Assembly: GCF_051622035.1 (NCBI RefSeq)
Contig: NC_135367.1
Coordinates: 28,226,001-28,290,000 of the forward strand
Direction of reading: 5' to 3'
DNA: 64,000 nucleotides
Source of the DNA: Arctopsyche grandis
Lineage: Eukaryota > Arthropoda > Insecta > Trichoptera > Hydropsychidae
Shown in pieces: positions 10,575-39,890 of the stretch (positions within the stretch are counted from its first letter, which is position 1; each line of letters starts with the position of its first letter). The notes under the pieces are model-generated. The model was not told the origin of the DNA. It did no database searches and saw only the letters and a list, made by a program, of their open reading frames with translations. Made by a program: the position numbers and the translations under genes.

Positions 10575-11941
10575 CATCATCATCATCATCATCATTTACA
10601 GCCACTCACCATCCACTGCTGGATGAAGGCCTCTCCAACACGTTTCCACCCGTCTCTGTTTTGCTCAACACTCATCCATCTCACCCCGCACATTTTCCTA
10701 ATTTCGTTCACCCATCTTCCTTGCGGTCTTCCTTTTACCCTTTTGCATTCTCTCGGGTACCATTCAAGCACTTCTTTTGTCCACCTTTCGTCCATCCTCC
10801 TAGCTACGTGACCCGCCCATTGCCATTTCAATCTCTTCACTCTATCCACTATGTCCACTACTCTTGTCATACTTCTCACCCACGTGTTCCGCTTTCTGTC
10901 TTTCCTCGTTATGCCAAGCATACAGAGCTCTATACTTCTTTGAGTGCATTGGATTTTATGTAGCATCTCGGTGTTCAGTGTCCAAGTTTCACATCCATAC
11001 GTCATCACTGGCAAAACGCATTGATCAAAGATCTTTTTCTTCAGGCAGAGTGGCATTTTTGATTTAAAAACAGCATTCATCCGTCCAAATGCACTCCATC
11101 CTAATTTCATACATCTTTTTATCTCTTCATCTTGACTACCAGACATGTCAATTATTTGACCTAAATATTAATAATTATTTACTACTTCTACTGGTTTATC
11201 ATCTAATGGGATGCTATCAGGCATGCAATAACTATTGAACATTAGTTTGGTCTTATCTACGTTAATTTTTAATCCTACTTTTCTACTTTCCCTGTCCAGC
11301 TGTGTTAGTCTGTTAAGTAGGTCAGCTGAATCACGAGCTATTAAAACTATATCATCTGCAAACCGAAGGTGACTCAAGAAGCGACCGTTGATGCTTACTC
11401 CGGCTTTGTCCCATTCCAAGTTCCTTAAAACTCCCTCAAGCACCGCATTGAATAACTTGGGCGAGATTGTATCTCCTTGTCTTACTCCTTTTCCTATGCT
11501 AAATCTATCTGTACCTGAAAAAATTTTAACCGAAGCTGTGGCATTCTTATATATTGCAGCTAACAGCCCCACATAGGGTTCCGGTATTCCCTGTGTTTGT
11601 AGAGCGTTAAGTACTGCATTGTGGCTCACTGTATCGAAGGCTTTCTCATAATCGACGAACCCTAGGCACAATGGCCGTTGATATTCGTTGGCGCGTTCGA
11701 TTAGTTCGCCAACTACTTGGAGGTGATCCATTGTGCTGAAATTTGCCCTAAATCCTGCCTGTTCTATAGGTTGGTTCTCGTCGAGGATATTCTTCAGCCT
11801 TTCTGTAATAACCTTCGTGAAGAGCTTGTAGACCGCTGAAAGTAAACTAATGGGTCGGTAGTTCTTGATATCGCTTTTATCATCTTTTTTGTGTATTAAG
11901 ATGATAGTTGCGTTATTCCATCCTTCTGGTATAGCTTGGTT
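10575..11941 (-). mobile_element. 5'-truncated RTE-clade LINE insertion
   Basis: The insertion is bounded by an 11-bp target-site duplication ACTTGATATAT (10564-10574 and 11942-11952), inside the TTAA MITE. On the minus strand it ends in a (TGA/ATG)n-type trinucleotide tail (10575-10598 on plus), as RTE elements often do. Its 5' end is truncated within the RT domain, near the motif IPEGWNNATIILIHKK. The endonuclease and the RT start are missing. Confidence 0.9.
10592..11941 (-). pseudogene. RTE reverse transcriptase fragment with one nonsense codon
   Basis: The frame reads through RT motifs in order: KNYRPISLLS, the first catalytic block VDYEKAFDTVSH, RQGDTISPKLF, and the second catalytic block LRFADDIVLI. 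The RTE C-terminal region follows, with MTYGCETWTL and WAGHVARR, ending WMVSGCK. One in-frame TAA at 11168-11170 (in the pattern NNY-stop-YLGQ) interrupts it; the same frame resumes immediately on the other side. The N-terminal residues of the longest ORF (before about 11,941) are host MITE sequence, not RT. The copy is truncated and not functional, but recent enough to keep its frame. Confidence 0.88.
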
Positions 11942-12082
11942 ACTTGATATATATGCACATATATATTGATATTGATATATATTGTCACATTCACTCAATA
12001 TATACATTCACCCAATATACATATATATATCGAAGAAAGGAACGGCAACAAAATGAAGGTTTCGTGTATCCAGCTCTCTTAA

Positions 12083-13896: not shown

Positions 13897-16241
13897 CTAT
13901 TTTGTAACAATATTTGACTGAAACAAGTTAGTAATTTTAACGTATAATGTATCCATTATACATATATCATAATCCCACGGTAGCTCTATAACAGTAACAT
14001 TTTGTCGTCCTACACCAAGTGACGCCAAATTATTCCAAACTTTTTTCACAGGATCAAATTCTGCTACTGATGTATTGTCTGATACTCCACCTGATATAAA
14101 CATATAAATTATTAAAATCTTATTAATTCTAAATAATTATTAATAAATATAACATATTTACAGCCATACGAACCAACATAAAACGGTCTGTTTCTCAAAG
14201 TTCCAACTCCAACCCAACCACCGAATGGGATCTTGCTGATTAACATCCAAGTATCAATTCTGGGATCATATCGCTCCATCTCCAATTGGGGATCTTTCCC
14301 GTAATCTTCTTTATAGCCTCCGATTGCATAAATATACTCTCCAGCGGCTGCTAGCTGTATATTCATAATTTCCAATAAAAATTTGAAATATATGCAACTA
14401 TTTGATTTAAACAAATAAAAATACATACATTAAAATAGGTACGAGTACGATTCATCGATGATTTAATCTGCCAACGATCAGCTTTTACGTTATAAACAAC
14501 AACACTGTTGAAAAATTGATTTTTATCTCTACCTCCAGCCACATAAACTTCATCTCCAACTGTCGCAACTCCAAATGCTTCTCTATTTATAATCATAGGC
14601 ATCACATATGACCAGGTTCTATTTACTAAATCCCATCTATGGACAATGAACATGAACATCAGATTTATCATTATATCTTGATCTCAAAGTCGACTGATTC
14701 AATCCTATTGGAAGGTTTTTGTTTCTAAAATTCATCCCTTTACTTATTTGTGACCAATTCTTAGGGATACTTAAGAAGTAGTCAAAAATAATAAAGGAAC
14801 TTAAGGTGATTTATTTTAAACAAGTCACAACATTCCCACTCAATATTTATCTTAAGGATCAGCTGAAGGTTTTCCATCATTGGGGAGAATGTTCAGTTGA
14901 TCCTAGATTGGAACTTCACCCAGTCATGAAGATGGTTTTGCAATAAGATGTAGAAGTTTTACATGTTTACATAACCTTGATTGATGATCTTATAATTTAA
15001 AATATAGTTTCTAACTATTTAATACCGACCTTTCGACAGTTTTAAGAGCTCCATTTTCTCCCATACCACCAATCGCATAAACTACTGCTGATCGACCTTT
15101 TCCAATAACAGCAATACCAAAATTATATCGTGATTCCTGTAAAGGTGCAATCGTTGTAACTCTGCCGTTTGTCAAATTATAAGATGTCACCTATGTAGGA
15201 ATTTGAGCAAATATGAATAGTTTAATTTTTTTTGTAGATGATAATTTTAGTGAAATATAATTTGTACCGTATTTGAAGTTGCTTTATCAATTCCACCGAT
15301 TATCATGAGCGAATCATCCACAAAAGCCGCCCCAAATCGAATTTTACTATTACTTATTTTTTTTAGTCGGTTCCAAGAGTATGAAGAAGCGTCGTAGATT
15401 TCTACGACGTCTGCTGTCTACATAAAAAAATATATATTTGTAGAAACAATTATTCTTATATTTAAAGTAAGAAAATATTAAACATATGGTAAAGGTTACG
15501 GAAACATGGAAGCTTCCCACAGCCAGGAATTTTTGAAAGGATTTTCGTGGCTTCGTTCGAGGAGATGTTAGAGCTGATCTTTGATCTGGGAAGAGATGAT
15601 ATCGCAGTGCTTCCAAAAAATAAGGACGACTCTCAGTCGATGGAAAAGTACTGGGTTCTACGACTGACAACAAATACTGAAAGTATTCAAAAATGGTTAA
15701 ATTAAATAGTTATTTAAATTTTGAATTTTTGAATGATTTAATGATTTTACCTCAGCGGATAAAAGTGGCAACCGTACGAATTCTATAAGAAAATGCAACT
15801 CTGTCGTAGGATTCAAATGGTTGTAAGCCAGCCATCTTGTCACACTTTCAAAAACGACACTTTCCGAATACACGTTTAGATCATCGGACTCGATCAACCT
15901 CACGAAAAATTCCCGTTTCAACTGAAGGAAGTCATCTTTAAGTTGAATCTATAATCAAAGAACAGTTTTACCCTCTAATAATTTAACAATTAACAATTTT
16001 AATTTTATACTCACTTCCATAAAATGGCATCTAGCGAATTCGAAGGCCTTTACAATTTGATTCTCGTCGTATTGGTTCGAATACAGCAAAACTGTTAGCC
16101 AAACTGGATTATTTTCGCACATTTTACCATATACATAAGTAGTATCAACGCGTAGTACTCGCATAAAATACAATTCACAATGATCAACGTCAAAAATATA
16201 AACAACCGTAAAATGCAGATTAAAGTCATTATCTTATGCAT
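13897..16241 (-). CDS. K1: BACK-kelch protein without BTB; signal peptide out of frame
   Basis: Eight exons joined by GT-AG introns: A 16015-16241, B 15751-15948, C 15500-15676, D 15268-15417, E 15030-15190, F 14429-14636, G 14174-14354, H 13897-14090. Exons A-C give a BACK domain (LIESDDLNVYSE, FVRLPLLSAE). Exons D-H give six kelch blades with GG pairs (IIGG, YAIGG, VAGG, YAIGG). No BTB domain precedes BACK. An ATG at 16239-16241 opens a good signal-peptide frame (MHKIMTLICILRLFIFLTLI), but that frame differs from the BACK frame. Compared with K2 there is about 35 nt of extra sequence between them. The in-frame ATG at 16162-16164 would give about 472 residues without a signal peptide. The C-terminus is about 20 residues longer than in K2/K3. 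It could be a functional cytosolic variant or an early pseudogene. Confidence 0.75.
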
Positions 16242-17096
16242 GTTATTCACTGAATTATTTATCTACCAATAAGAATATTCTATGAAACAAACAACTAACA
16301 TTGATTAAATATTCCATACACAGAGTTTTTCTTATCTTTCATGTGGTTAGCTATATCTTCAATTCCTTTTATCTTTATTTGTTACATTTAAAAATTCAAT
16401 AGATTGAGTTGAATCTTCCAAATATAATGCTGGTTTGATATTTTTGGGGCTGGATGAATTGTAGGATTATCAATATTCATTTAGAAGATTTTATATTTAA
16501 AGGTGTATTTTTATTTATAGAAAATATACGAGGTTAAGTTTTCGTCAAAATTTTTTTTAAGTTCATAACTGTTAGATAAAACATTTTTTTTTTGTTTGAG
16601 ATATAAGAAAATTGGAAAATATCACTGATTAGATTCATGTTTACGTATATTGTAAAATATAATTCCATAAAAACTCTACGTTGGTGTAAAATATTAATCT
16701 ATGGTGTATTGTTGATTTTCATATCCAAAGCTCAATGTATGTATATATTTATAATAAAAATCTCATATAATCATATCAGCAACACATTTAATAGTTTGAG
16801 CTTTATTTATTGTACTAATTTTCACATTAAAAGCAATACATGTCGCATAAAAAAATCTTCGTAATAATTCATTATCAATGATCAAAATACTCCTTGAAAA
16901 ATATCTTCATCATCTTTTATGAAACTTCACTCTCATTATTCCTACTGATATATCTTCTTATTGGAAATTATTACAGTTTTATCTTCCAAAAACAATGACG
17001 CACTGATATATGTTAAGACATATAATACATATGTTTATTTCTTATCACATAGATACATAGTAAAATATATTTTCAAAAAAGTTTTAAAAAAAATGA
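16242..17096. other. spacer between K1 and K2
   Basis: No exon found. The segment at about 16,960-17,095 resembles the 3' flank of K3 (about 19,665-19,800): both contain TTATCTTCCAAAAACAATGA and ATACATAGTAAAATATA. The cluster's duplication unit therefore includes 3' flanking DNA. Confidence 0.5.
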
Positions 17097-17102
17097 TTTA
17101 TT
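17097..17102 (-). terminator. polyadenylation signal of kelch gene K2
   Basis: AATAAA on the minus strand about 36 nt past the K2 stop codon. Motif and position only. Confidence 0.45.
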
Positions 17103-17138
17103 GTACAGAAACACGATCTAAAAGTATTTAACAAATCA

Positions 17139-19076
17139 TTATATTTCATAATTCCATGGCAGTTCCACCATTATAACACCATTACGTCCAATTGTTAGCG
17201 GTGCTAAATCATTCCATACTCCTTTCTCAGGATCATATTCTTGCACTCTTGTGATATCTTTTTCTCCACCTAATATGCACATTATTATGTTTATGTAATA
17301 AATATTAAACCTTTTTTGCAATATATAAGTTAATGTTTGATGTTAAACTAACCAACATAAAACGGTCTTCCCATCAATGTTCCACTTCCTAACCAACCAC
17401 CGAACGGGATCGATTCGATTAACTTCCAAGTATCTCTTCTGGGATCATAACGCTCGACTTCAAGTTGAGGATCTTGCCCAAAAAGTTCACTATATCCTCC
17501 AATTGCATAAATATGTTCACCAGCCACTGTTAACTACATATAAGCAATACACACTTATTTATTTATACATGCATGTGCTATATTAAACGTGATTCAAATA
17601 AGAATAATTAAGGACATACGCTACAATGACTCCTAACATGATACATCGACGCTTTTATCACCCAACGATCACTTTTTATATTGTAAACTTCCATGCTGTT
17701 GTAGTATTTGTTTTCCGACAACGAGTAACCTCCAGCTACATAAATATTATCACCAATTGTTGCCACTCCAACTTTTTCTCTTTTCATTAACATTGGCGAT
17801 ACATAAAACCATTTTCGGTTTTCTGCATCCCATCTATGAGTCGATTAAACGATTTTATAAAAACTTTGCTATTATCATGTTTTTAAATGTTTACAAAGCT
17901 GATACTCACTTTTCAACAGTTCTCAAGGCTGAAGTTTCTCCCCGGCCACCGATAGCATATATAATTGTTAATTGACCCTCTCCAACAACAGCAACACCCA
18001 TATTACATCGTGCTTCTTGTAAAGATGCCATCGTTGAAACTGTACCGGATTTTAAATTATATGACACCACCTAAGAATTTGTTAGATTAGATGTGAGTTG
18101 CTTCATTCAAATTATGTCATGTCATGCAAGTTAAATATGTACCGTGTCCGTAAGTACTTCCCAAAGCCCGCCGATGCACATAAGTGAATCCTCCACAAAA
18201 GCGGCTCCATAAGAATATCTTTTGGAACCTAATGCTTTTAATAGTTTCCAAGAGTCAAGAGTTGCGTCATAGATTTCCATAACATCTGATTTCTGTATGA
18301 AAGTAGGTATATGCATATTGGTTACGTGCTTTTTTAATTTAAAAACGCATTAATCGTCTGATATAAAATTACGTCTAAATCCCAGTGTCCTACGGATAGA
18401 TATTTTTGGTAGGATTTTCGTTGTTTTGTCCGAGGAGATATCATAGTTGGTCTTTGATCTGGGAAGAGATGGTATCGCAGAGCTTCCAAAAAATACGGTC
18501 GGCTCTCAGATGATGCGAATATGTAGGGCTCTACGTCTGACATTAAATACTGAAAGCATAAAAAATAGTTACATAAAACAATAAATATTCTGGAAAACTA
18601 TTGTGATATTACATACCTCTGCAGATAATAGCGGCAATCGCACACATTCTATAAGAAGATGCAAATTGGCTTCTGGTTTCATGTGATTAAATTCCAGCCA
18701 TCGCTTTACACTTTCAAATACGATATTTTCCGAATATGCATTTAATTCATCAGGCTTAATAAGTCTTGTGAAAAATTCCAATTTTAGTTCGAGAAAGTCA
18801 TCTTTTAAGTGAATCTACAATTATGCAAAAATATATATATTTATTAGTAATTAGTATTACATTTTCAATAAATGCACTTTATTTTGTACTCACTTCCATA
18901 AAATTGTGTCGAGCGTATTCAAATGCCTTTTCAATTTCACTTTCATCGTATTGATCGGGATTCAACAAAACTGTCAACCAATCTGAATCGTCAATCTTAC
19001 TCTCACATATTGTGATACTTAAAAACAATATCAAAATTGAAATGTTTAAAATCATTTTATTCGATTGGTGGCCCAT
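17139..19076 (-). CDS. K2: predicted secreted BACK-kelch protein lacking BTB
   Basis: Eight exons, all with GT-AG junctions and consistent phases: A 18894-19076, B 18617-18814, C 18373-18549, D 18143-18292, E 17910-18070, F 17620-17833, G 17353-17533, H 17139-17269. The predicted protein is about 464 residues. Residues 8-26 are a hydrophobic signal peptide (MILNISILILFLSITI, ending CES). BACK follows at about residues 30-150 (FEYARHNFMEV, then RLIKPDELNAYSE and CVRLPLLSAE). A linker and six kelch blades run from about residue 187 to the end (MCIGG, YAIGG, VAGG, YAIGG, then EKGVWNDL). Canonical KLHL proteins use an N-terminal BTB to bind CUL3; here there is no room for one between signal peptide and BACK. 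The start ATG gives the signal peptide directly. A secreted, CUL3-independent role is inference; the molecular target is unknown. Confidence 0.85.
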
Positions 19077-19363
19077 GATGAAGTGATGCTATCTACTATT
19101 TGTGTCTTATTTTAAATGAAACGCGTTGTCATCAATCTTATCTTTATTCAATGGTGTTTTAAACCTAAGATATGATTATATGTTGTTTTTAATACAATAT
19201 TTAGTAAGTCGGTAATATACTTTATGTATTGTATCTTTTAATCTCTCATCTGATTCTCGTGTTTTTAGATTTTAATCATAATCTTACGCATTCATGGCAT
19301 CCATAAATAACACAAAATAAAATCCTGTAATATTATATTTTAACAGTTTGTAAATAAACTTAC

Positions 19364-19512
19364 TTCCATAAAATGGTGAAGAGCGAATTGAATCATTGGT
19401 ACTCTGATTCTCATTGTACAGATTGGGATCCAACAAAACTTTTAGCGAATCTTCTAAATCTAATCTAATCTAATCTAATCTAAATCTTCAGTTTTACTCT
19501 CACATTTCCTAT
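19364..19512 (-). pseudogene. solitary relic of kelch exon A
   Basis: On the minus strand this resembles exon A of K2/K3. It keeps the donor region (TTTTATGGAA|GTAAGT), the stretch encoding the BACK start and part of the signal peptide region. The frame is broken, and a TCTAA pentanucleotide expansion (about 19,460-19,490) interrupts it. No other exon of this copy lies nearby. It is the remains of a further gene copy or of a partial duplication. Confidence 0.6.
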
Positions 19513-19911
19513 CGAGTTGTTGTTATTCTTTCAAATATGTATGTATGTACGTATGTATAATGCAATGCTGAAAACGCCACTCAAATAATGTAATTAAAAA
19601 TATGATAAAATATTGCAAATACATTTTTTCTATCGATATATCATTTAATTTGAAATTATCTTTGCACAAATTTATCTTCCAAAAACAATGATATAAGTAA
19701 AGACATATAATGTCAATTGACATATAATGTCAATTGACATATATGTCAATTTCTTACCACATAACATACATAGTAAAATATACTTCGATAGTGCAGTTGT
19801 TTGATATATAATATGTATTTTGATTGAACAATAAATATTTACAAAAATAAAAAGTTTTAGAGAAAATAAGCTATTTTATAGAAATATGATCTAAAAGTAT
19901 TTAACAAATCA

Positions 19912-21798
19912 TTATATTTCATAATTCCATGGCAGTTCTACCATTATAACACCATTACGTCCAATTGTTAGCGGTGCTAAATCATTCCATACTCCTTTCT
20001 CAGGATCATATTCTTGCATCATTGTATTGTCTTTTTCTCCACCTAATATGTACATTATTATGTTTATTTAATAAATATTAAATCTTTTTTGCAATATATA
20101 AGATTATGTTTGATGTTAAACTAACCAACATAAAATGGTCTTCCCATCATAGTCCCACTTCCTAACCAACCACCGAATTCGATCGATTCGATTAACTTCC
20201 AAGTATCTCTTCTGGGATCATAGCGTTCAACTTCAAGTTGGGCATCTGAATATCCAAACCTTTTTGCATACCCTCCAATTGCATAAATATACTCTCCAGC
20301 AACTGTTAACTACATGTTATCAATAATTAATAAATTATTAAAATATATCGCACATTATAAATAAAAAAAAACATACACTACAATGATTCCTAACACGATT
20401 CATTGGCGATTTTGGCACCCAACGATCAATTTTTGTATTGTAAACTTCCATACTGTTGTAGTAAAAGCCTTCATCAAAGGAGTGACCTCCGGCTACATAA
20501 ATATCATTACCGATTGTCGCCACTCCAACTGCTTCTCTTTTCATTAACATCGGCATTACATAAACCCATTTTAGATTTTTAGTATCCCATCTGAGAACAA
20601 TTAATATATCGATTATATAGGTAATTTGACGATCATCATGTTTTTTAATGTTTACAGAGCTGATACTGACTTTTCAACAGTTCTTAAGGCTGTATCTTCT
20701 CCCCAACCACCGATCGCATAAATAGCTGTTGATTGCTCCTCCTCAACAACGGCAATACCCATATTATATCGTGCATCTTGTAAAGGTGCCATCGTGGTCG
20801 ATTTTCCCGATTTTAAATCATACGATAACACCTAAGAACTCGTACAAGTGGATATCAGACGATTTATGTACTATCGAGTCTTTAATACAAAATAAAATGT
20901 ACCTCATTTTTAGTCTCATTAAAATATCCGCCAATGACCATTAGTGAATCCTTCACAAAAGCAGCTCCATAATAATATATTTCTTTAGATTCGAAATTTA
21001 TTAATTCAGACCAACAATCGAGAGCTGCGTTATAGATTTCTACTACAGGTGATTTCTGTGTTAAATGTTAAAGTTTGATAATTGGTATTTTAATTTCGAA
21101 ACATCTTAGGGCTGAAGTAACATTACCGTTGGTTTCGAACTTATAGCCAGGAACTTTTGGAACGATTTTCTAGGTTTAGTCTGAGGGGATGTCATAGTTG
21201 GTCTTTGATCTGGGAACAGATGATATCGCAGAGCTTCCACAAAATACGGATGGCTCTTAGATGATGCAAAAATGTAGGGATCTACATCTGACATTAAATA
21301 CTGAAAGCATAAAAAATAGTTACGTAAAACATTAAATATTTTGGAAAACTATTGTGAAATTAGATACCTCTGCAGATAAAAGCGGCAATCGCACGAATTC
21401 AAGGAGTAAATGCAAAAAATATTGTGGTTTTAAATGTTTAAATGCCAGCCATCTTTTTACACTTTCAAATACGATTTCCTCCGAATGTGCATTTAAATCA
21501 TCAGGTTCAATGAGTCTTGTAAAAAATTCCAAATTCAACTGAAGAAATTCATCTTCTAATTGAATCTTGAATTATAAAATAAATTTATATTTTTCAGTCA
21601 AGATGATATTTTAAATAATTTTAATTTGATACTCACTTCCATAAAATTGTGTCGAGCGAATTGAAAGGCTGTTTCGATTTGTTTTTCATCGTAGTCTTTG
21701 GGATGCAACAAAACATACAACCAGTCTGGATCGTCAAATTTACTTTCGCATATTTTGATACTTATAAATAGTATCAAAATTGAAATTTTTAAATTCAT
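19912..21798 (-). CDS. K3: predicted secreted BACK-kelch protein lacking BTB
   Basis: Eight exons with GT-AG introns: A 21637-21798, B 21368-21565, C 21127-21300, D 20903-21055, E 20671-20831, F 20377-20590, G 20126-20309, H 19912-20042. The predicted protein is about 458 residues. The signal peptide starts at the first ATG (MNLKISILILFISIKI, ending CES). BACK has RLIEPDDLNAHSE and FVRLPLLSAE. Six kelch blades follow (MVIGG, YAIGG, VAGG, YAIGG). Exons G and H are almost identical to K2, while exon D is strongly diverged, with roughly half its residues changed. Exons B and C are intermediate. A TATA-like box lies about 65-75 bp upstream of the ATG. All exons are open, so the gene is probably functional. 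Extracellular function is inferred. Confidence 0.85.
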
Positions 21799-21863
21799 AA
21801 CGAGTGGAAGATTTTCTCGTAGAATCCGATCAAAATGAGGTGTTGCAACTCACTCGAAATCTT

Positions 21864-21875
21864 ATTTTATATAAA
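21864..21875 (-). promoter_or_regulatory. TATA-like box of K3
   Basis: Minus-strand TTTATATAAAAT about 66-77 nt before the K3 start codon, which leaves space for a short leader. The GTGAGTTGC just downstream is a possible start region. A motif related to ACTCACTCGAAAT also occurs upstream of psi-K4 (near 24,942-24,955), so promoter sequence was duplicated with the genes. Confidence 0.5.
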
Positions 21876-22079
21876 AATCAAGACGTATTTTACTCCATTT
21901 ATCTAATCTCCGTTCAATTGTATCATTATTATTTTCGTAGAATATTTGATATTATTATTTTTTTTCAATACTATCAGATTCAGATAAACTGTATGTATTG
22001 TGCCACTTTTGTTTATTTGTGACACAATATCGTTCAAATGACGAGCACGACTTGAATCTGATGATGGAGATTATTATTA

Positions 22080-22848
22080 ACTAGTGAATAGCCCGATGAA
22101 ACATCATCGCATGGGTATAAAATTATTATATACTCGTATAAACCTAAAAAACCGTTATTTTCGTAGACTCTCATAGATAGTTTTCAATTCTTTATTTGTA
22201 ATAATTTTCAATTCTTAAAGTTAAAGTGAACAAAATGTTAATTTAAGTTAACAAAATGTAATATTTTCCGATTATACACAAACGGTCATTGACCTCGTAA
22301 CGTTGAATATTATTATTACACATAACAAATTACGTGCATATACATATGATGTGTATTTACAAACACGTATTCTGGGCAAGGATATGGCGTCCGGCGCGGA
22401 CTCGTGAGAACATCGCGTTTGGATCGGAGGGTCCGAGCTTCGATTCCCGGCACCCGCGGTGAATGAAATCAATTTTTTTCTCGAATATCGTCAAAATATA
22501 AATAATTTAAATTTAAATTTAAATTTAATTAAAAATAAATATATAAAAAAATGGTTCAAAACCTCGTTAAATGAAATTATTAAAATTAAGTATTTTTATA
22601 TGGCGAGAAGGAATATTTCAATTAATGTTTAAAAAAAAAGTCGAAATGAAGAATTGGATTTGGCGTGATGTTCGCGACCATTAGCTCAATTTAGACCTAT
22701 ATTCAGGCTATTTGGGGTTCGAGTCGCGACAAAGTCTTCTCGTCGAAAAATGAATTTATCGATTTTTATCGATTCATTCATTATGTTTGGCGAGAGTTAG
22801 GACACACACACACACACAGATTACCGTCTTTATATATATGATATGATA
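22080..22848 (+). mobile_element. composite SINE-like insertion with two tRNA-like boxes
   Basis: It begins near CTAGTGAATAGCCCGATGAA and ends in an (AC)n run followed by GATTACCGTCTTTATATATA, a terminus of the type seen in RTE-driven insect elements. Two internal parts look tRNA-derived. One spans 22,378-22,455, with TATGGCGTCCGGC and a B-box-like CTTCGATTCCCGG. The other spans 22,655-22,735, with TTTGGCGTGATG and GGGTTCGAGTCG. It sits where the 3' end of pseudogene psi-K4 should be and probably helped destroy it. Boundaries are approximate. Confidence 0.45.
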
Positions 22849-22857
22849 TCAATTAAT

Positions 22858-24896
22858 TTTCCAATACCAGCCCAGTCACAAAACGGTATCGAATTGACTA
22901 ACGTTAACTCGACCAGTATTGTAATCCTTTCAATTCTTAGATTATTAAATTATTTTACAAAATTGTTAAACTAAAAATAGTATTAAAATTCATTGATTTA
23001 GATAAATTAGCTTAATAGAAGAAATAAGCTACTGGTCTGATAGATATTTATCAGGGATGTATTTAAGGATAGTTTCAAGTGAATTTTTGGATAAATAAGA
23101 GGCTAAATTTGAATAATTAAATATCGTCATATATGTATATATGTAATATAGATAATCCACGCCGTACTACATAAAATAGTCGTTTCGATTCGACATAAAT
23201 ACATACATATGTATGTATGTACGTCACAATTTCAATTCTGGGATCATACCGTTCCACTTCAAGCTCCGTAGTTTGTCTATTTAAACCTCCTATTGCGTAA
23301 ATATATTCTCTAGAAACCGCTAACTACATAACACAGATATATGCGTGTACTATTTACAGTAATTTATTATTTGCATACACACATAAAAATATAATAAAAC
23401 TTGATAATACTAAGAAATGAAACCTACACTACAGTACATCCTTATATGTTTCATGGGTGGTTTCAGCACCCAACGGTCGGATTTTACATTGTAAACTTCC
23501 ATAGTGTTGTACCTTATTTCTGTAAGGTGAACATAGCCTCCGGCTACATAAATATTGTCACCAATTGTTGCAACTCCAAACCCTTCTCTTTTCTCAATCA
23601 TCGGCATAACATATAACCACCTTCGATTTTTTACATCCCATCTATGAACAATGAATGTAACATTATTACTTTTTATCATTAAGTTCTCTGAGAATGGAAG
23701 CCTTTTGTTTCCGCCAAACAAAATGAAGTTCATTGTTCTAACTATGTATGTAATAAACGATGCCTGTTTGCTAGTAACCCTGACTTTTCAACAGTTGCTT
23801 CGACTCCGTTTCGTCCCCAACCTCCGATCGCATAAACGATGGTTGATTGACCCTCTCCAATAACAGCAACACCCAATGTATCTCGTGCTTGTTGTAATGA
23901 TGCCATGTTTGTCATTGTGTCCGATTTTAAATCATAAGACACCACCTAAAATTTGTACGAGTAGATTTTGAGTCAAATCATTCAAAATATAGTCAGTGTT
24001 GCAAATAAATTTTGTACCGTGTTCAAAACTTCATTCGTATTTCCACTGATGATCAGTGAATCTTCAAAAAAAGCAGCTCCAAATCAAATTTTCTTTATGT
24101 TCAATTTTCTCAATTCAGTCCAGCAGTTAAGAGATGCATCGTAGATTTCCACAACGTCAGATTTCTGTAAATACTCGAATATTGTAACATTACCTATGAT
24201 TAAGTTTTAAACGTTTTGTGTTCTTACTTCCATATTGAAGCTTCCGACAGCCAGATATTTTTGGAAGGATTTTCTAGGTTTAGTTCGAGGGGATATCATA
24301 GTTGGCCTTTCATGTGGGAATAGATGATTTCGCAGAGCTTCCAAAAAATACGAACGGCTCGCAGTTGATGGGAAAGTGTGGGGCTCTACGTCCGACATTA
24401 AATACTGAAAGTGTAATTCATAATTTGGATGAAATAATAAATGTTGTCAAACAATTTTGTAATTTTACCTCGGCAGATAGAAGTGGCAATCGCACAAATT
24501 TTAATAGTAAATGCAAAACATATTCAGGTTTCAACTGTTTAAATGCCAGCCATCTTTTCACACATTCAAATACGATTTTCTCCGAATATGCATTTAGATC
24601 ATCAGGTTCAATGAGTCTTGTAAAAAAATCCAAATCCAACTGAAGAAAGTCATCTTCTAATTGAATCTTCAATAATAAAATTAATTTATATTTTTCAACA
24701 ATCAATACGATATTTTAAAATATCTTTGATTTTATATTAACTTTCATAAAATTGTGTCGAACGTATCGAAAGGCTGATTCAATTTCATCCTCATTGTATC
24801 GATCAGAATTCAATAACACTGTTAACCAATCTGAATCATACTTTGGCATAATTTGACACTCAAAAAGGGTATCAAAACTGTAATTTTTAAATTCAT
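22858..24896 (-). pseudogene. psi-K4: disrupted BACK-kelch gene
   Basis: Recognisable exons: A 24742-24896, B 24469-24666, C 24228-24404, D 24018-24164, E 23785-23945, F 23428-23641, and exon G in two pieces (about 23,240-23,332 and 22,858-22,927). There are four independent lesions. The signal-peptide frame (MNLKITVLIPFL, start 24896) is about 7 nt out of frame with BACK. The exon A donor is weak (GTTAAT). Exon D has a nonsense TGA at 24084-24086 where K1 has CGA, and its GG pair is lost. Exon G is split by a 292-bp insertion. Exon H is absent. Exons B, C, E and F remain open and well conserved, so inactivation looks recent. Confidence 0.85.
22938..23229. mobile_element. unclassified 292-bp insertion in psi-K4 exon G, 10-bp target duplication
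   Basis: TTTCAATTCT occurs at 22928-22937 and again at 23230-23239, bracketing sequence foreign to exon G. The exon text resumes on the far side, encoding a match to IPFGGW written as IPFCDW. The insert is AT-rich and ends in a TATG/TACA microsatellite (about 23,200-23,222). I see no tRNA box and no terminal inverted repeat. Confidence 0.65.
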
Positions 24897-26412: not shown

Positions 26413-26507
26413 TTAATAAAGTGTATAATCCCATGGTAGATTCACTATTTTAACATTGTTACGTGCAACACCAAGTGGGGCCAACAATTGCCCACAAAGT
26501 ATTTAAA
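26413..26507 (-). pseudogene. solitary relic of kelch exon H
   Basis: The minus strand encodes a recognisable last kelch blade, APLGVARNNVKIVNLPWDY, then TLY and a stop. This aligns with APLTIGRNGVIMVELPWNY of K2/K3 and with the K1 end. A one-base insertion breaks the frame just upstream of the conserved part. No other exon is found up to 27 kb. It shows that the cluster was once larger. Confidence 0.7.
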
Positions 26508-37149: not shown

Positions 37150-39890
37150 CTATTTATTTTTTTATTTTATTTTATTAATTGAAAAATCAACAGACAGGAT
37201 GTACAGAGATAGGTATAAAAAACACAAAAAGTAAATAAATAATATATGTAACACCCGAGTCCAATAATAGATTTTTACAAAAATGAAAAAGATAAATATA
37301 AGGAAAACAAATTAAAAAGTAAAGAATAAAGGCATGACAAAATATGTAGTACATTGCATAATTAAACTATAGTATTAAAATATTTGGAAAAGGTTATAAG
37401 ATAGAATATAAGAAGAAATTGAAATTTACAAATATAAAAAACAAATGAAAAAGGTAAATACAAAATAAACAAATGAAATGGAAAGGAATGAAAGCTATAA
37501 TATGATTAAATAGCACATTACATAACTAAACTAAAGTATAAAAATAATGGAAATATTGGAAAAATAGAATAGAAGAAAAAATGAATCAATCGGTCAAGAT
37601 TCTCTTGATGTTAGACCTGAATTGATGTAGGGAAATACCAAACAGATCAACCTCATTCAGCTCTCCGTTAAACATACGATAAACGCGCTGCAGATAAAAA
37701 TATTTTTGGGAATTAGTATTGAAAGGATCAAGTGAAAAGAGTGTAACGCGTCTAGGGTATCGAACTGGGATTCTGAAATTAACCTTATTCAGTAAATCAG
37801 AACAATCAAGGAAACCATTTATGAGCTTAAAGAAGAATATAGCATCAGAATGTCGTCGCCTGACAGAAAGATTGTTAAAAGAAAGGATTTTTAAAATGTC
37901 GGAAACAGTAGAATGGGTATAGGTAGGAAAAAGGTAGCGTAAGGATTTAATAAATTTAAGTTGAACTTTCTCAATACAATTAATATGGGATAAATAAAAA
38001 GGTGACCAGATAATTGAGGCAAATTCAAGGTGAGACCTTACAAAGGAAAAATAAAGTAATTTTAGTACATAAGGATCATTAAAGGGTTTTGTTGAGCGGA
38101 GTAGGAATCCAAGAGATTTAAATGCTTTGTTGGTAATAAAAGAAATATGTTCAGAGAAATCTAGTTTATTATTGAGTATTACACCAAGATCCTTAATAGA
38201 AGATGACGTGTTAAGGATTGAATGATTTAATTGATATTGATTAGTAATAATTGACTTATTTCTAGTGAAATTTAAAATAGAGCATTTTTCTAGATTAATA
38301 AAAAGATCATTATTTAAACAATATATAGAGAATCTATCTAGATCTTCTTGTATCTTATGACAATCGTCTATGGTGTATATAGGTTTGTAAATTTTTAAAT
38401 CATCAGCGTAAAGAAGTATAAAGGAATGTTTGAAGATGTATGAGATATCATTAATATAGAGTAAAAAGAATAAGGGACCTAAATGCGACCCTTGTGGGAC
38501 ACCGGAAGGAATATGTCTAAGTGATGATCTAAAACCATTGAGAATTATGATTTGGTGACGATTTAGTATATACGAAGAGATCCAACGAAATAAATTTCCT
38601 CGGATTCCAAGGGACCAAAGTTTATTGAGTAAAAGGTTGTGATTGATTTTATCAAAAGCTTTAGAGAAATCCGTATAAACGACGTCTATTTGGATTCGTT
38701 TGTCCATATAAGATGTGAGAGTACTAGTGAAATTAAGCAGGTTAGTCTCTACCGATCTCCCCTTAAAAAAACCATGTTGTTCAGGTATAATGTAGTTTTT
38801 GAAATTGGAGAAAAGGAAATTATAGATAATTTTTTCAAAGATTTTACTAATGACAGATAGTTTAGATATAGGACGGTAATTCTCAATAAGATTCTTATCA
38901 CCTTTTTTAAAAATAGGGGTGATGTAAGATAATTTCCAATAGTCAGGAAATTTACCGTTCGACATAGAAAGATTGAAAAGGATTGTTATGGGAAGAGATA
39001 ATGGGACAGCACATTTAACAAGGAAAAAAGAAGGCAAACCATCACAACCCGCACCAAGATTAACATTGAGAGAGTTGATGTGACTGAGTACAGTAGATAA
39101 GTCAAAATGAAAAGTAGATAAGTTACAAGAAGAAGTATCTGTATTAGAGATAGAAAGGTTAATGGTAGAATCACTATTGAAAGTGGAGTCAAAATAGTCA
39201 GCAAAAATGGTACAGATTTCAGAACCATGTGAAGCCGACTTATTTCCATAATACATTACGGAAGGATATGAAGAGGAGGTATTTTTTTTTGAATTTATAT
39301 ATGACCAAAATGATTTGGGATTAGTTTTAATATTATTTTGAATAAGAGAAATATAATTTCTAAAGCAGATTAAAGAATATTTTTTAATTCGAGCTCTTAA
39401 TAGTGAAAAACTTTGATAATCTAAGGGATTTGAATAAATTTTAAATTTTTTATGGAATTTGTTTTTTTCTTTTATTATTTTAATAAGAGACGATGTAAAC
39501 CAAGGGGGATATTTGGTACGCTTAGATTTAAGAGTAAAAGGGACGTGGCATTCAATAATATTTTGTAAGGTATCGTAAAATTTTTTACAAGCTAAATCAA
39601 TATTTAAATTGGACAAAAGTGAATTCCAATTGATATCGCTTAAAATTGGAATAATTGTAGCATAGTCAGCTTTTCTAAAGAGGAAAGTTTTATTATAATT
39701 ATAATTCAAGGGTGAAGATTTGTTGTAAATTATTGAGATGCAAAAGGATAAATGATGAGAATCTTCATGGATTCTATATCTTGATGTTGTTCGGTCGATG
39801 TCTCGAAATCTGTTAATTTCCTGTTCAAAATGAATAATGGAATCTATAGTCGAGTATCTTTCATTTGTAGTACTTTTCAGCTTTCAAATA
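37150..39890 (-). mobile_element. LINE-A: jockey/CR1-like non-LTR retrotransposon, 5'-truncated
   Basis: The insertion lies within the inverted-repeat element. Minus-strand order: the end of the endonuclease region, the full RT ORF, and about 430 bp of AT-rich 3' UTR ending in a TTAATAAAATAAAATAAAAA-like tail near 37,150-37,190. Most of the endonuclease is missing. Degraded relatives lie at 40.9, 41.4-42.25 and 57.4-58.1 kb. Confidence 0.85.
37586..39883 (-). CDS. LINE-A reverse transcriptase ORF (5' end truncated)
   Basis: An uninterrupted frame of about 765 codons from just after a TGA at 39884-39886. There is no clear native start because the element is truncated. The first part (DSIIHFEQEINRFRDIDRT) is the C-terminal edge of the endonuclease. 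Numbering from a leucine codon at 39709, RT motifs are ENYRPISKLSVISKIFEKII (about 276-295), the catalytic TDFSKAFDKINHN (about 346-358), SGVPQGSHLGPLFF (about 402-415) and catalytic YADD (434-437). The post-RT region and the C-terminus (RSNIKRILTD) are complete. All catalytic residues are present, so the enzyme domain may be active although the element cannot retrotranspose alone without its endonuclease. Confidence 0.88.
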   Translation of the reverse strand, partial: KLKSTTNERYSTIDSIIHFEQEINRFRDIDRTTSRYRIHEDSHHLSFCISIIYNKSSPLNYNYNKTFLFRKADYATIIPILSDINWNSLLSNLNIDLACKKFYDTLQNIIECHVPFTLKSKRTKYPPWFTSSLIKIIKEKNKFHKKFKIYSNPLDYQSFSLLRARIKKYSLICFRNYISLIQNNIKTNPKSFWSYINSKKNTSSSYPSVMYYGNKSASHGSEICTIFADYFDSTFNSDSTINLSISNTDTSSCNLSTFHFDLSTVLSHINSLNVNLGAGCDGLPSFFLVKCAVPLSLPITILFNLSMSNGKFPDYWKLSYITPIFKKGDKNLIENYRPISKLSVISKIFEKIIYNFLFSNFKNYIIPEQHGFFKGRSVETNLLNFTSTLTSYMDKRIQIDVVYTDFSKAFDKINHNLLLNKLWSLGIRGNLFRWISSYILNRHQIIILNGFRSSLRHIPSGVPQGSHLGPLFFLLYINDISYIFKHSFILLYADDLKIYKPIYTIDDCHKIQEDLDRFSIYCLNNDLFINLEKCSILNFTRNKSIITNQYQLNHSILNTSSSIKDLGVILNNKLDFSEHISFITNKAFKSLGFLLRSTKPFNDPYVLKLLYFSFVRSHLEFASIIWSPFYLSHINCIEKVQLKFIKSLRYLFPTYTHSTVSDILKILSFNNLSVRRRHSDAIFFFKLINGFLDCSDLLNKVNFRIPVRYPRRVTLFSLDPFNTNSQKYFYLQRVYRMFNGELNEVDLFGISLHQFRSNIKRILTD

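What the first reader, a model, noticed from the sequence alone, without database searches (positions are those of the whole stretch)
13897..24896. Tandem family of predicted secreted BACK-kelch proteins without BTB
Seen: K2 and K3 have a start codon, a strong signal peptide and, within a few residues, the beginning of a BACK domain, then six kelch blades over eight conserved exons. Known: BACK-kelch architecture in animals normally follows an N-terminal BTB that recruits CUL3 in the cytosol. Inference: the BTB was replaced by a signal peptide, giving a secreted propeller family. Tandem duplication, rapid divergence and pseudogenes suggest an interface with other organisms (plant host, symbiont, pathogen) or reproduction. 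This is the best candidate for an undescribed system here.
Basis: partly seen in the sequence, partly recalled or inferred. Interest (0 to 1): 0.9.

Follow-up and report, generated by a model that had tools for sequence, protein, structure and literature searches.

The report
Kelch genes that lost BTB
A small cluster of genes, probably from an insect, has lost the part that normally plugs such proteins into the cell's protein-disposal machinery, and two of its members carry a predicted export signal instead, so they may be sent out of the cell.

Summary
K2 (window 19076-17139, minus) and K3 (21798-19912, minus) are intact eight-exon genes with GT-AG introns. Each encodes a hydrophobic N-terminus, a BACK domain lacking its start, and a six-blade kelch propeller. 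No BTB was found in the cluster. K2-K3 dN/dS is 0.41, so they are genes, not debris.

"Secreted family" is too broad. K4 is broken. K1 is open in eight exons, but the hydrophobic frame upstream of it is out of frame. An intact relative about 24 kb away (L040) also lacks BTB and has no leader. The shared change is BTB loss; an in-frame leader is shown only for K2 and K3. The family lies within a large BTB-BACK-kelch expansion (at least 151 BACK matches).

Most likely the K genes are former CUL3-adaptor propellers that lost the ligase-docking domain, and K2/K3 are now exported. Secretion is predicted, not shown. Faster change at the ligand-face loops is real, but an ordinary BTB-kelch pair shows it too, so it is no special evidence for a role against other organisms. 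The species was not identified.

The parts
17139..19076 (-). K2: intact 8-exon gene, leader + BACK + kelch, 464 aa. Exons 19076-18894, 18814-18617, 18549-18373, 18292-18143, 18070-17910, 17833-17620, 17533-17353, 17269-17139
   Evidence: open frame, GT-AG; Pfam; KEAP1 208-612; in-frame stop 5 codons upstream
19912..21798 (-). K3: intact 8-exon gene, leader + BACK + kelch, 458 aa. Exons 21798-21637, 21565-21368, 21300-21127, 21055-20903, 20831-20671, 20590-20377, 20309-20126, 20042-19912
   Evidence: in-frame stop 18 codons upstream
13897..16122 (-). K1: eight open exons, BACK + kelch, read from MCENNPVW, no in-frame leader; tail extended to a stop at 13897. A hydrophobic reading frame lies upstream (about 16241-16095) but is out of frame with BACK.
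   Evidence: no in-frame stop within 30 codons upstream, so the start could be further up
23237..24896 (-). K4: broken copy; leader still readable (MNLKITVLIPFLSVKLCQS) but out of frame with BACK, stop in exon D, 3' exons missing
19355..19466 (-). possible relic of exon A between K3 and K2
   Evidence: weak tblastn pieces, E 0.50
26419..26484 (-). possible relic of the last exon of a further copy
   Evidence: 22 aa, 54.5% identity, E 0.005
18999..19055 (-). K2 leader MILNISILILFLSITICES, possible cleavage after CES
   Evidence: coordinates derived from the exon A model
21742..21798 (-). K3 leader MNLKISILILFISIKICES, possible cleavage after CES

Best explanation
This is a BTB-less branch of the genome's own expanded BTB-BACK-kelch (KLHL-type) family. 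Shown: no BTB is found in the cluster; the first BACK exon carries the start codon in K2, K3 and L040; K1, K2, K3 and L040 are kept open; the exon boundary inside BACK is the same as in the BTB-bearing relatives tested. Inferred: without BTB the proteins can no longer dimerise and dock to CUL3 as KLHL proteins do, so the propeller works as a plain binding module. Inferred: in K2 and K3 the short hydrophobic leader acts as a cleaved ER signal peptide, so they enter the secretory pathway, while K1 and L040 stay in the cytosol. The target bound by the propeller is unknown; the loops after each GG, which form the ligand face in KEAP1 (recalled), change most.
For: Open 8-exon models and splice sites. 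BACK entered at profile position 18; KEAP1 aligned from residue 208. No BTB on C13 28.10-28.29 Mb among the 143 matches of a capped list, and none by a local BTB profile in window 13-32 kb, L039, L040 or L041, while L001, L002 and L008 in the same run were positive. Exon end in K2 (GTGAGT donor after HNFME) matches 5 of 5 BTB-bearing relatives tested. K1-K3 group with L040/L041 apart from 21 other loci on BACK exon B (support 88); K2-L040 42.5% over 431 aa. dN/dS K2-K3 0.41; all six pairs of K1, K2, K3, L040 lie between 0.30 and 0.41. Substitution-only neutral drift left the K2 frame open in 15 of 2000 runs at d = 0.05 and 0 of 2000 at 0.1 and at 0.208. Leader: 4 synonymous changes over 10.7 sites against 4 replacement changes over 46.3 sites for K2-K3; hydrophobic in K2, K3 and K4.
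Against: No transcript, no SignalP run, no secretion data. The leader test is a home-made rule: it rejects K2 if translation starts at its second Met, rejects K4's leader, and accepts K1's out-of-frame upstream frame. No conserved cysteine pair in K2/K3 (shared mature Cys only at 360/353), and one N-glycosylation site in K3 and none in mature K2, so the mature proteins do not look adapted to the outside. K2-K4 and K3-K4 leader differences are not concentrated at third codon positions. Only two intact copies have the leader.
Confidence: 0.6

Rival explanations
1. Cytosolic BTB-less decoys: K1, K2, K3 and L040 all act inside the cell, binding KLHL substrates (or partners) without delivering them to CUL3. 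The hydrophobic stretch of K2/K3 is unused, is skipped by a downstream start, or is a membrane anchor.
For: L040 and K1 are open and constrained without any in-frame leader. BACK is constrained (dN/dS 0.18-0.33 among K1, K2, K3). No sign of disulphide pairs.
Against: The leader of K2/K3 holds the first in-frame Met after the upstream stop and stays hydrophobic in K2, K3 and K4; a background ORF passes the rule in 8 of 321 cases.
Confidence: 0.25
2. Missed BTB: an upstream exon encodes BTB and splices to exon A, so these are ordinary KLHL proteins.
For: In the relatives BTB sits on separate upstream exons. An AG lies just before the K2 start codon, so a splice acceptor there cannot be ruled out from sequence alone. 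K1 has no in-frame stop within 30 codons upstream.
Against: No BTB in the local scan or in the capped genome list near the cluster. Between K3's stop and K2's start there are only 835 bases. In-frame stops precede the ATG of K2 and K3 and of L040 (read).
Confidence: 0.05
3. Dying tandem array: the copies are truncated pseudogenes whose frames have not yet decayed.
For: K4, L039 and L041 are broken, and possible relic exons lie beside the copies.
Against: K1, K2, K3 and L040 are open in all eight exons, with dN/dS 0.30-0.41 and dS 0.42 or more; neutral survival 0 of 2000 at d = 0.1.
Confidence: 0.1

Closest known systems
KLHL (BTB-BACK-kelch) CUL3 adaptors, for example KEAP1, KLHL3, KLHL20
   Same: BACK plus six-blade kelch, match to KEAP1 208-612; same exon boundary as five of the genome's own BTB-BACK-kelch genes
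   Different: No BTB found, and the start of BACK is divergent. In KLHL3 about 80% of the CUL3 surface is BTB and the first BACK hairpin is the 3-box (passages of PMC3616122).
Galectin-3-binding protein (LGALS3BP, Gal-3BP)
   Same: A secreted protein with a signal peptide and a BACK domain, so BACK outside the cell has a precedent (passages of PMC9266551)
   Different: Gal-3BP has BTB and SRCR among its three named domains and no kelch propeller is named there
KLHDC kelch-only proteins
   Same: kelch propeller without BTB
   Different: KLHDC usually have neither BTB nor BACK (passages of PMC3658946); the K proteins keep BACK
Vaccinia BTB-kelch proteins (search listing of PMC6484134) and secreted insect ligase-mimic effectors such as Hessian fly SSGP-71 (recalled)
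   Same: Ubiquitin-adaptor modules reused at a biological interface
   Different: Those keep a ligase-docking domain (BTB, or F-box as recalled); none was found in the K proteins

Membership tests
KLHL (BTB-BACK-kelch) | BTB/POZ domain | tested here: not met
   (capped list)
KLHL (BTB-BACK-kelch) | BACK domain | tested here: met
   Pfam BACK from profile position 18 of 103
KLHL (BTB-BACK-kelch) | five to six kelch repeats | tested here: met
   six blades read by eye from the alignment (Pfam itself reports four stretches)
KLHL (BTB-BACK-kelch) | CUL3 binding | not testable with these tools
   Inferred lost because most of the KLHL3 contact surface is BTB
Secreted BACK protein of the Gal-3BP type | signal peptide | tested here: inconclusive
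   Heuristic only; K2 and K3 pass
Secreted BACK protein of the Gal-3BP type | SRCR and BTB domains | tested here: not met
   One search lists neither at E up to 0.1
KLHDC | kelch without BTB or BACK | tested here: not met
   BACK present
Host-directed effector family | expression in salivary or other secretory gland and delivery to a host | not testable with these tools
   No expression data; species unknown

The most novel reading that the evidence does not exclude
An intracellular ubiquitin-ligase adaptor was turned into an exported recognition propeller in two steps that both survive side by side in one chromosome region: BTB loss (L040, K1) and then an in-frame signal peptide (K2, K3). The large BTB-kelch expansion in this genome, with its fast ligand loops, supplied the propellers.
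Probability: 0.4. Interest if true: 0.65.

Novelty: new variant of a known kind. Interest (0 to 1): 0.45.

Why it matters
If K2/K3 are exported, they would be a case of a CUL3-adaptor propeller re-used outside the cell, with the intermediate state (BTB lost, no leader) still present nearby. BACK without BTB would also let one ask what BACK does on its own. If they stay inside, they are natural BTB-less decoys, which is a smaller but testable point.

Tried and rejected
Missed BTB exon: rejected. One search is weak by itself: it scored 150 of 300 candidates, and the like list for BACK does not show the K cluster's own BACK exons, so absence from such a list means little. Pseudogene array: rejected for K1, K2, K3 and L040.

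Fast ligand loops as evidence of a host interface: dropped, because an ordinary BTB-bearing pair (L004/L005) shows the same excess (17 of 55 loop positions differ against 20 of 212 elsewhere) as K2/K3 (32 of 63 against 50 of 228).

Leader lost or gained by one 7-base difference: considered, because K1 and K4 share a 7-base gap at the junction. The tree puts K4 with K2/K3 (support 97; K3+K4 54) and leaves K1 against L039 open (49), so recurrent change is possible. A short unseen intron joining K1's upstream frame to BACK was thought of and not tested.

Species: Xestobium rufovillosum (475.50 Mb, 13 pseudomolecules) was rejected because its longest scaffold is 53.6 Mb (passages of PMC12504945), while C1, the longest contig whose length I saw, is 42.7 Mb. 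Sitobion avenae (475.7 Mb, search listing only) was set aside for its chromosome number, which is recalled. A mitochondrial segment (L054) did not settle the order.

Papers: ten searches. Searches were for the species. Searches were for the protein: 3, 7 and 18 returned nothing; one listed 20 of 33, 55 listed 15 of 17, 56 listed 15 of 56. No listed title or shown abstract start described a secreted BACK-kelch protein. The two papers were opened at passages; the russet mite paper has both words only in its reference list. The library lacks most subscription journals.

Full report
Setting. The window is contig C13, 28,226,001-28,290,000, of a 475.7 Mb genome in 189 contigs. The contig is 29.5 Mb long, so the cluster lies about 1.3 Mb from its end. 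Short introns and a mitochondrial segment readable with the invertebrate code suggest an insect; this was not shown and the species was not identified. Reverse transcriptase frames lie around the cluster.

What is there. Four kelch copies lie on the minus strand. K2 and K3 have eight exons each, with GT and AG at every intron and frames open for 464 and 458 aa. Pfam finds kelch and BACK in both; BACK enters its profile at position 18 of 103, so the first part of BACK is divergent or gone. Among solved structures, full-length KEAP1 (6wcq) aligns over K2 49-454 and KEAP1 208-612. Six blades can be read by eye from the alignment, the first with a degenerate GG. K1 is open over eight exons from MCENNPVW to an extended tail ending at 13897; its true start is not fixed, since no in-frame stop lies within 30 codons upstream. 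K4 is broken. Pieces at 19355-19466 and 26419-26484 may be relics of further copies; both matches are weak.

No BTB. The genome list of BTB matches (143 listed; 150 of 300 candidates scored) has none on C13 between 28.10 and 28.29 Mb. Such lists are incomplete: the like list for BACK does not show the K cluster. A profile built from ten BTB segments of this genome found nothing above chance in window 13-32 kb, L039, L040 or L041, and found L001, L002 and L008 in the same run; L035, L042 and L047 were also without. Elsewhere BTB is common: in 12 stretches upstream of BACK exons that I chose from the 151 matches, a BTB-like segment was seen in 10 and not in L042 and L047 (L043, L044 and L052 by eye only, and the weakest of the other seven at E 4e-3). 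In L003-L006 BTB exons were read by eye. L007 was not examined for BTB. The exon boundary inside BACK (phase 0, GTGAGT donor) is the same in K2 and in the five BTB-bearing relatives tested, which supports descent from such a gene.

Relatives. The K2 search of the genome (91 of 732 candidates scored) lists matches above 41% identity only on C13: the window copies, L039 at 28.10 Mb (broken), and pieces of L040 and L041 at 28.214-28.222 Mb (37-46%). On four exons L040 and L041 are 56-59% identical in DNA to the K copies and L039, and 94% to each other. K2 and L040 proteins share 42.5% over 431 aa. On BACK exon B, K1-K3 with L040/L041 separate from 21 other loci of this genome with support 88 (26 sequences, about 60 aa), so one BTB loss for all is favoured but not proven. 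L040 is an intact eight-exon BACK-kelch gene starting MGVSYYLDVLL, with an in-frame TAA six codons upstream and no leader. L041 is broken. The DNA tree groups K2, K3 and K4 (support 97), with K1 and L039 outside them in unresolved order.

The leader. K2 reads MGHQSNKMILNISILILFLSITICES and K3 reads MNLKISILILFISIKICES before the BACK region. In-frame stops lie 5 and 18 codons upstream of the two start codons. My crude rule accepts K2 and K3, rejects K1, L040, K4 and K2 from its second Met, accepts K1's out-of-frame upstream frame, and accepts 8 of 321 background frames. Between K2 and K3 the leader has 4 synonymous changes over 10.7 sites and 4 replacement changes over 46.3, a small sample. 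Differences to K4 do not favour third positions, as expected if K4 is decaying or the constraint is loose. K1 and K4 share a 7-base gap at the leader-BACK junction. The leader of K4 is otherwise readable, so loss of frame there probably followed a working leader; for K1 this cannot be told.

Selection. NG86 dN/dS is 0.41 for K2-K3 and 0.30-0.41 for all six pairs of K1, K2, K3 and L040. With substitutions alone, the K2 frame stayed open in 15 of 2000 neutral runs at d = 0.05, 0 of 2000 at 0.1 and 0 of 2000 at 0.208. The intact copies are therefore kept by selection. Positions after each GG differ in 32 of 63 cases between K2 and K3, against 50 of 228 in the rest of the propeller (p = 1.5e-5); their dN/dS is 0.73 against 0.39, below 1, and dS is higher there too (0.63 against 0.34). 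The ordinary pair L004/L005 shows the same pattern (17 of 55 against 20 of 212, p = 2.4e-4), so this seems a property of the larger family.

How it most likely works. In KLHL3, BTB makes the dimer and about 80% of the CUL3 surface, and the first BACK hairpin (the 3-box) the rest (passages of PMC3616122). Without BTB and with a divergent 3-box, CUL3 recruitment is unlikely; this is inference. What remains is a binding propeller on a BACK stalk. For K2 and K3 the leader would send it into the secretory pathway; for K1 and L040 it would stay in the cytosol. BACK outside the cell has a precedent in Gal-3BP (passages of PMC9266551). Against export: no conserved cysteine pair and hardly any glycosylation sites in K2/K3.

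Verdict. Observation confirmed; interpretation partly supported. A new variant of a known kind: BTB-less BACK-kelch genes, two of them with a predicted signal peptide.

Noticed in passing
genome-wide: C6 1.8-4.4 Mb, C8 1.4-3.0 Mb, C9 27-32 Mb of 33.4, C10 1.0-2.4 Mb: At least 151 BACK exon matches (capped list), many in clusters towards contig ends: a large BTB-BACK-kelch expansion, with fast ligand loops in the one pair tested. This may be of more interest than the K cluster itself.
   Followed up: partly
C2:26.038-26.232 Mb: Nine BACK exon matches 21-29 kb apart whose scores alternate (66.5, 67.8 bits; the last 65.2), as if a two-gene unit was repeated; no BTB seen in the about 2.5 kb fetched upstream of the first (L042)
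   Followed up: partly
C1:36.08 Mb (L054): Mitochondrial segment from ND2 to ATP6 with full-length COX1 lying inside a large contig: a nuclear insert or a misjoin
   Followed up: no
window 37586-39883 (-) and 11168-12007 (-): A 765-aa reverse-transcriptase-like open frame (by eye) and a 279-aa frame with Pfam RVT_1: retrotransposons around the cluster
   Followed up: no
window 16241-15955 (-) and 24896-24830 (-): K1 and K4 share a 7-base gap at the leader-BACK junction although the tree does not group them; short repeats there may make the deletion recur
   Followed up: partly
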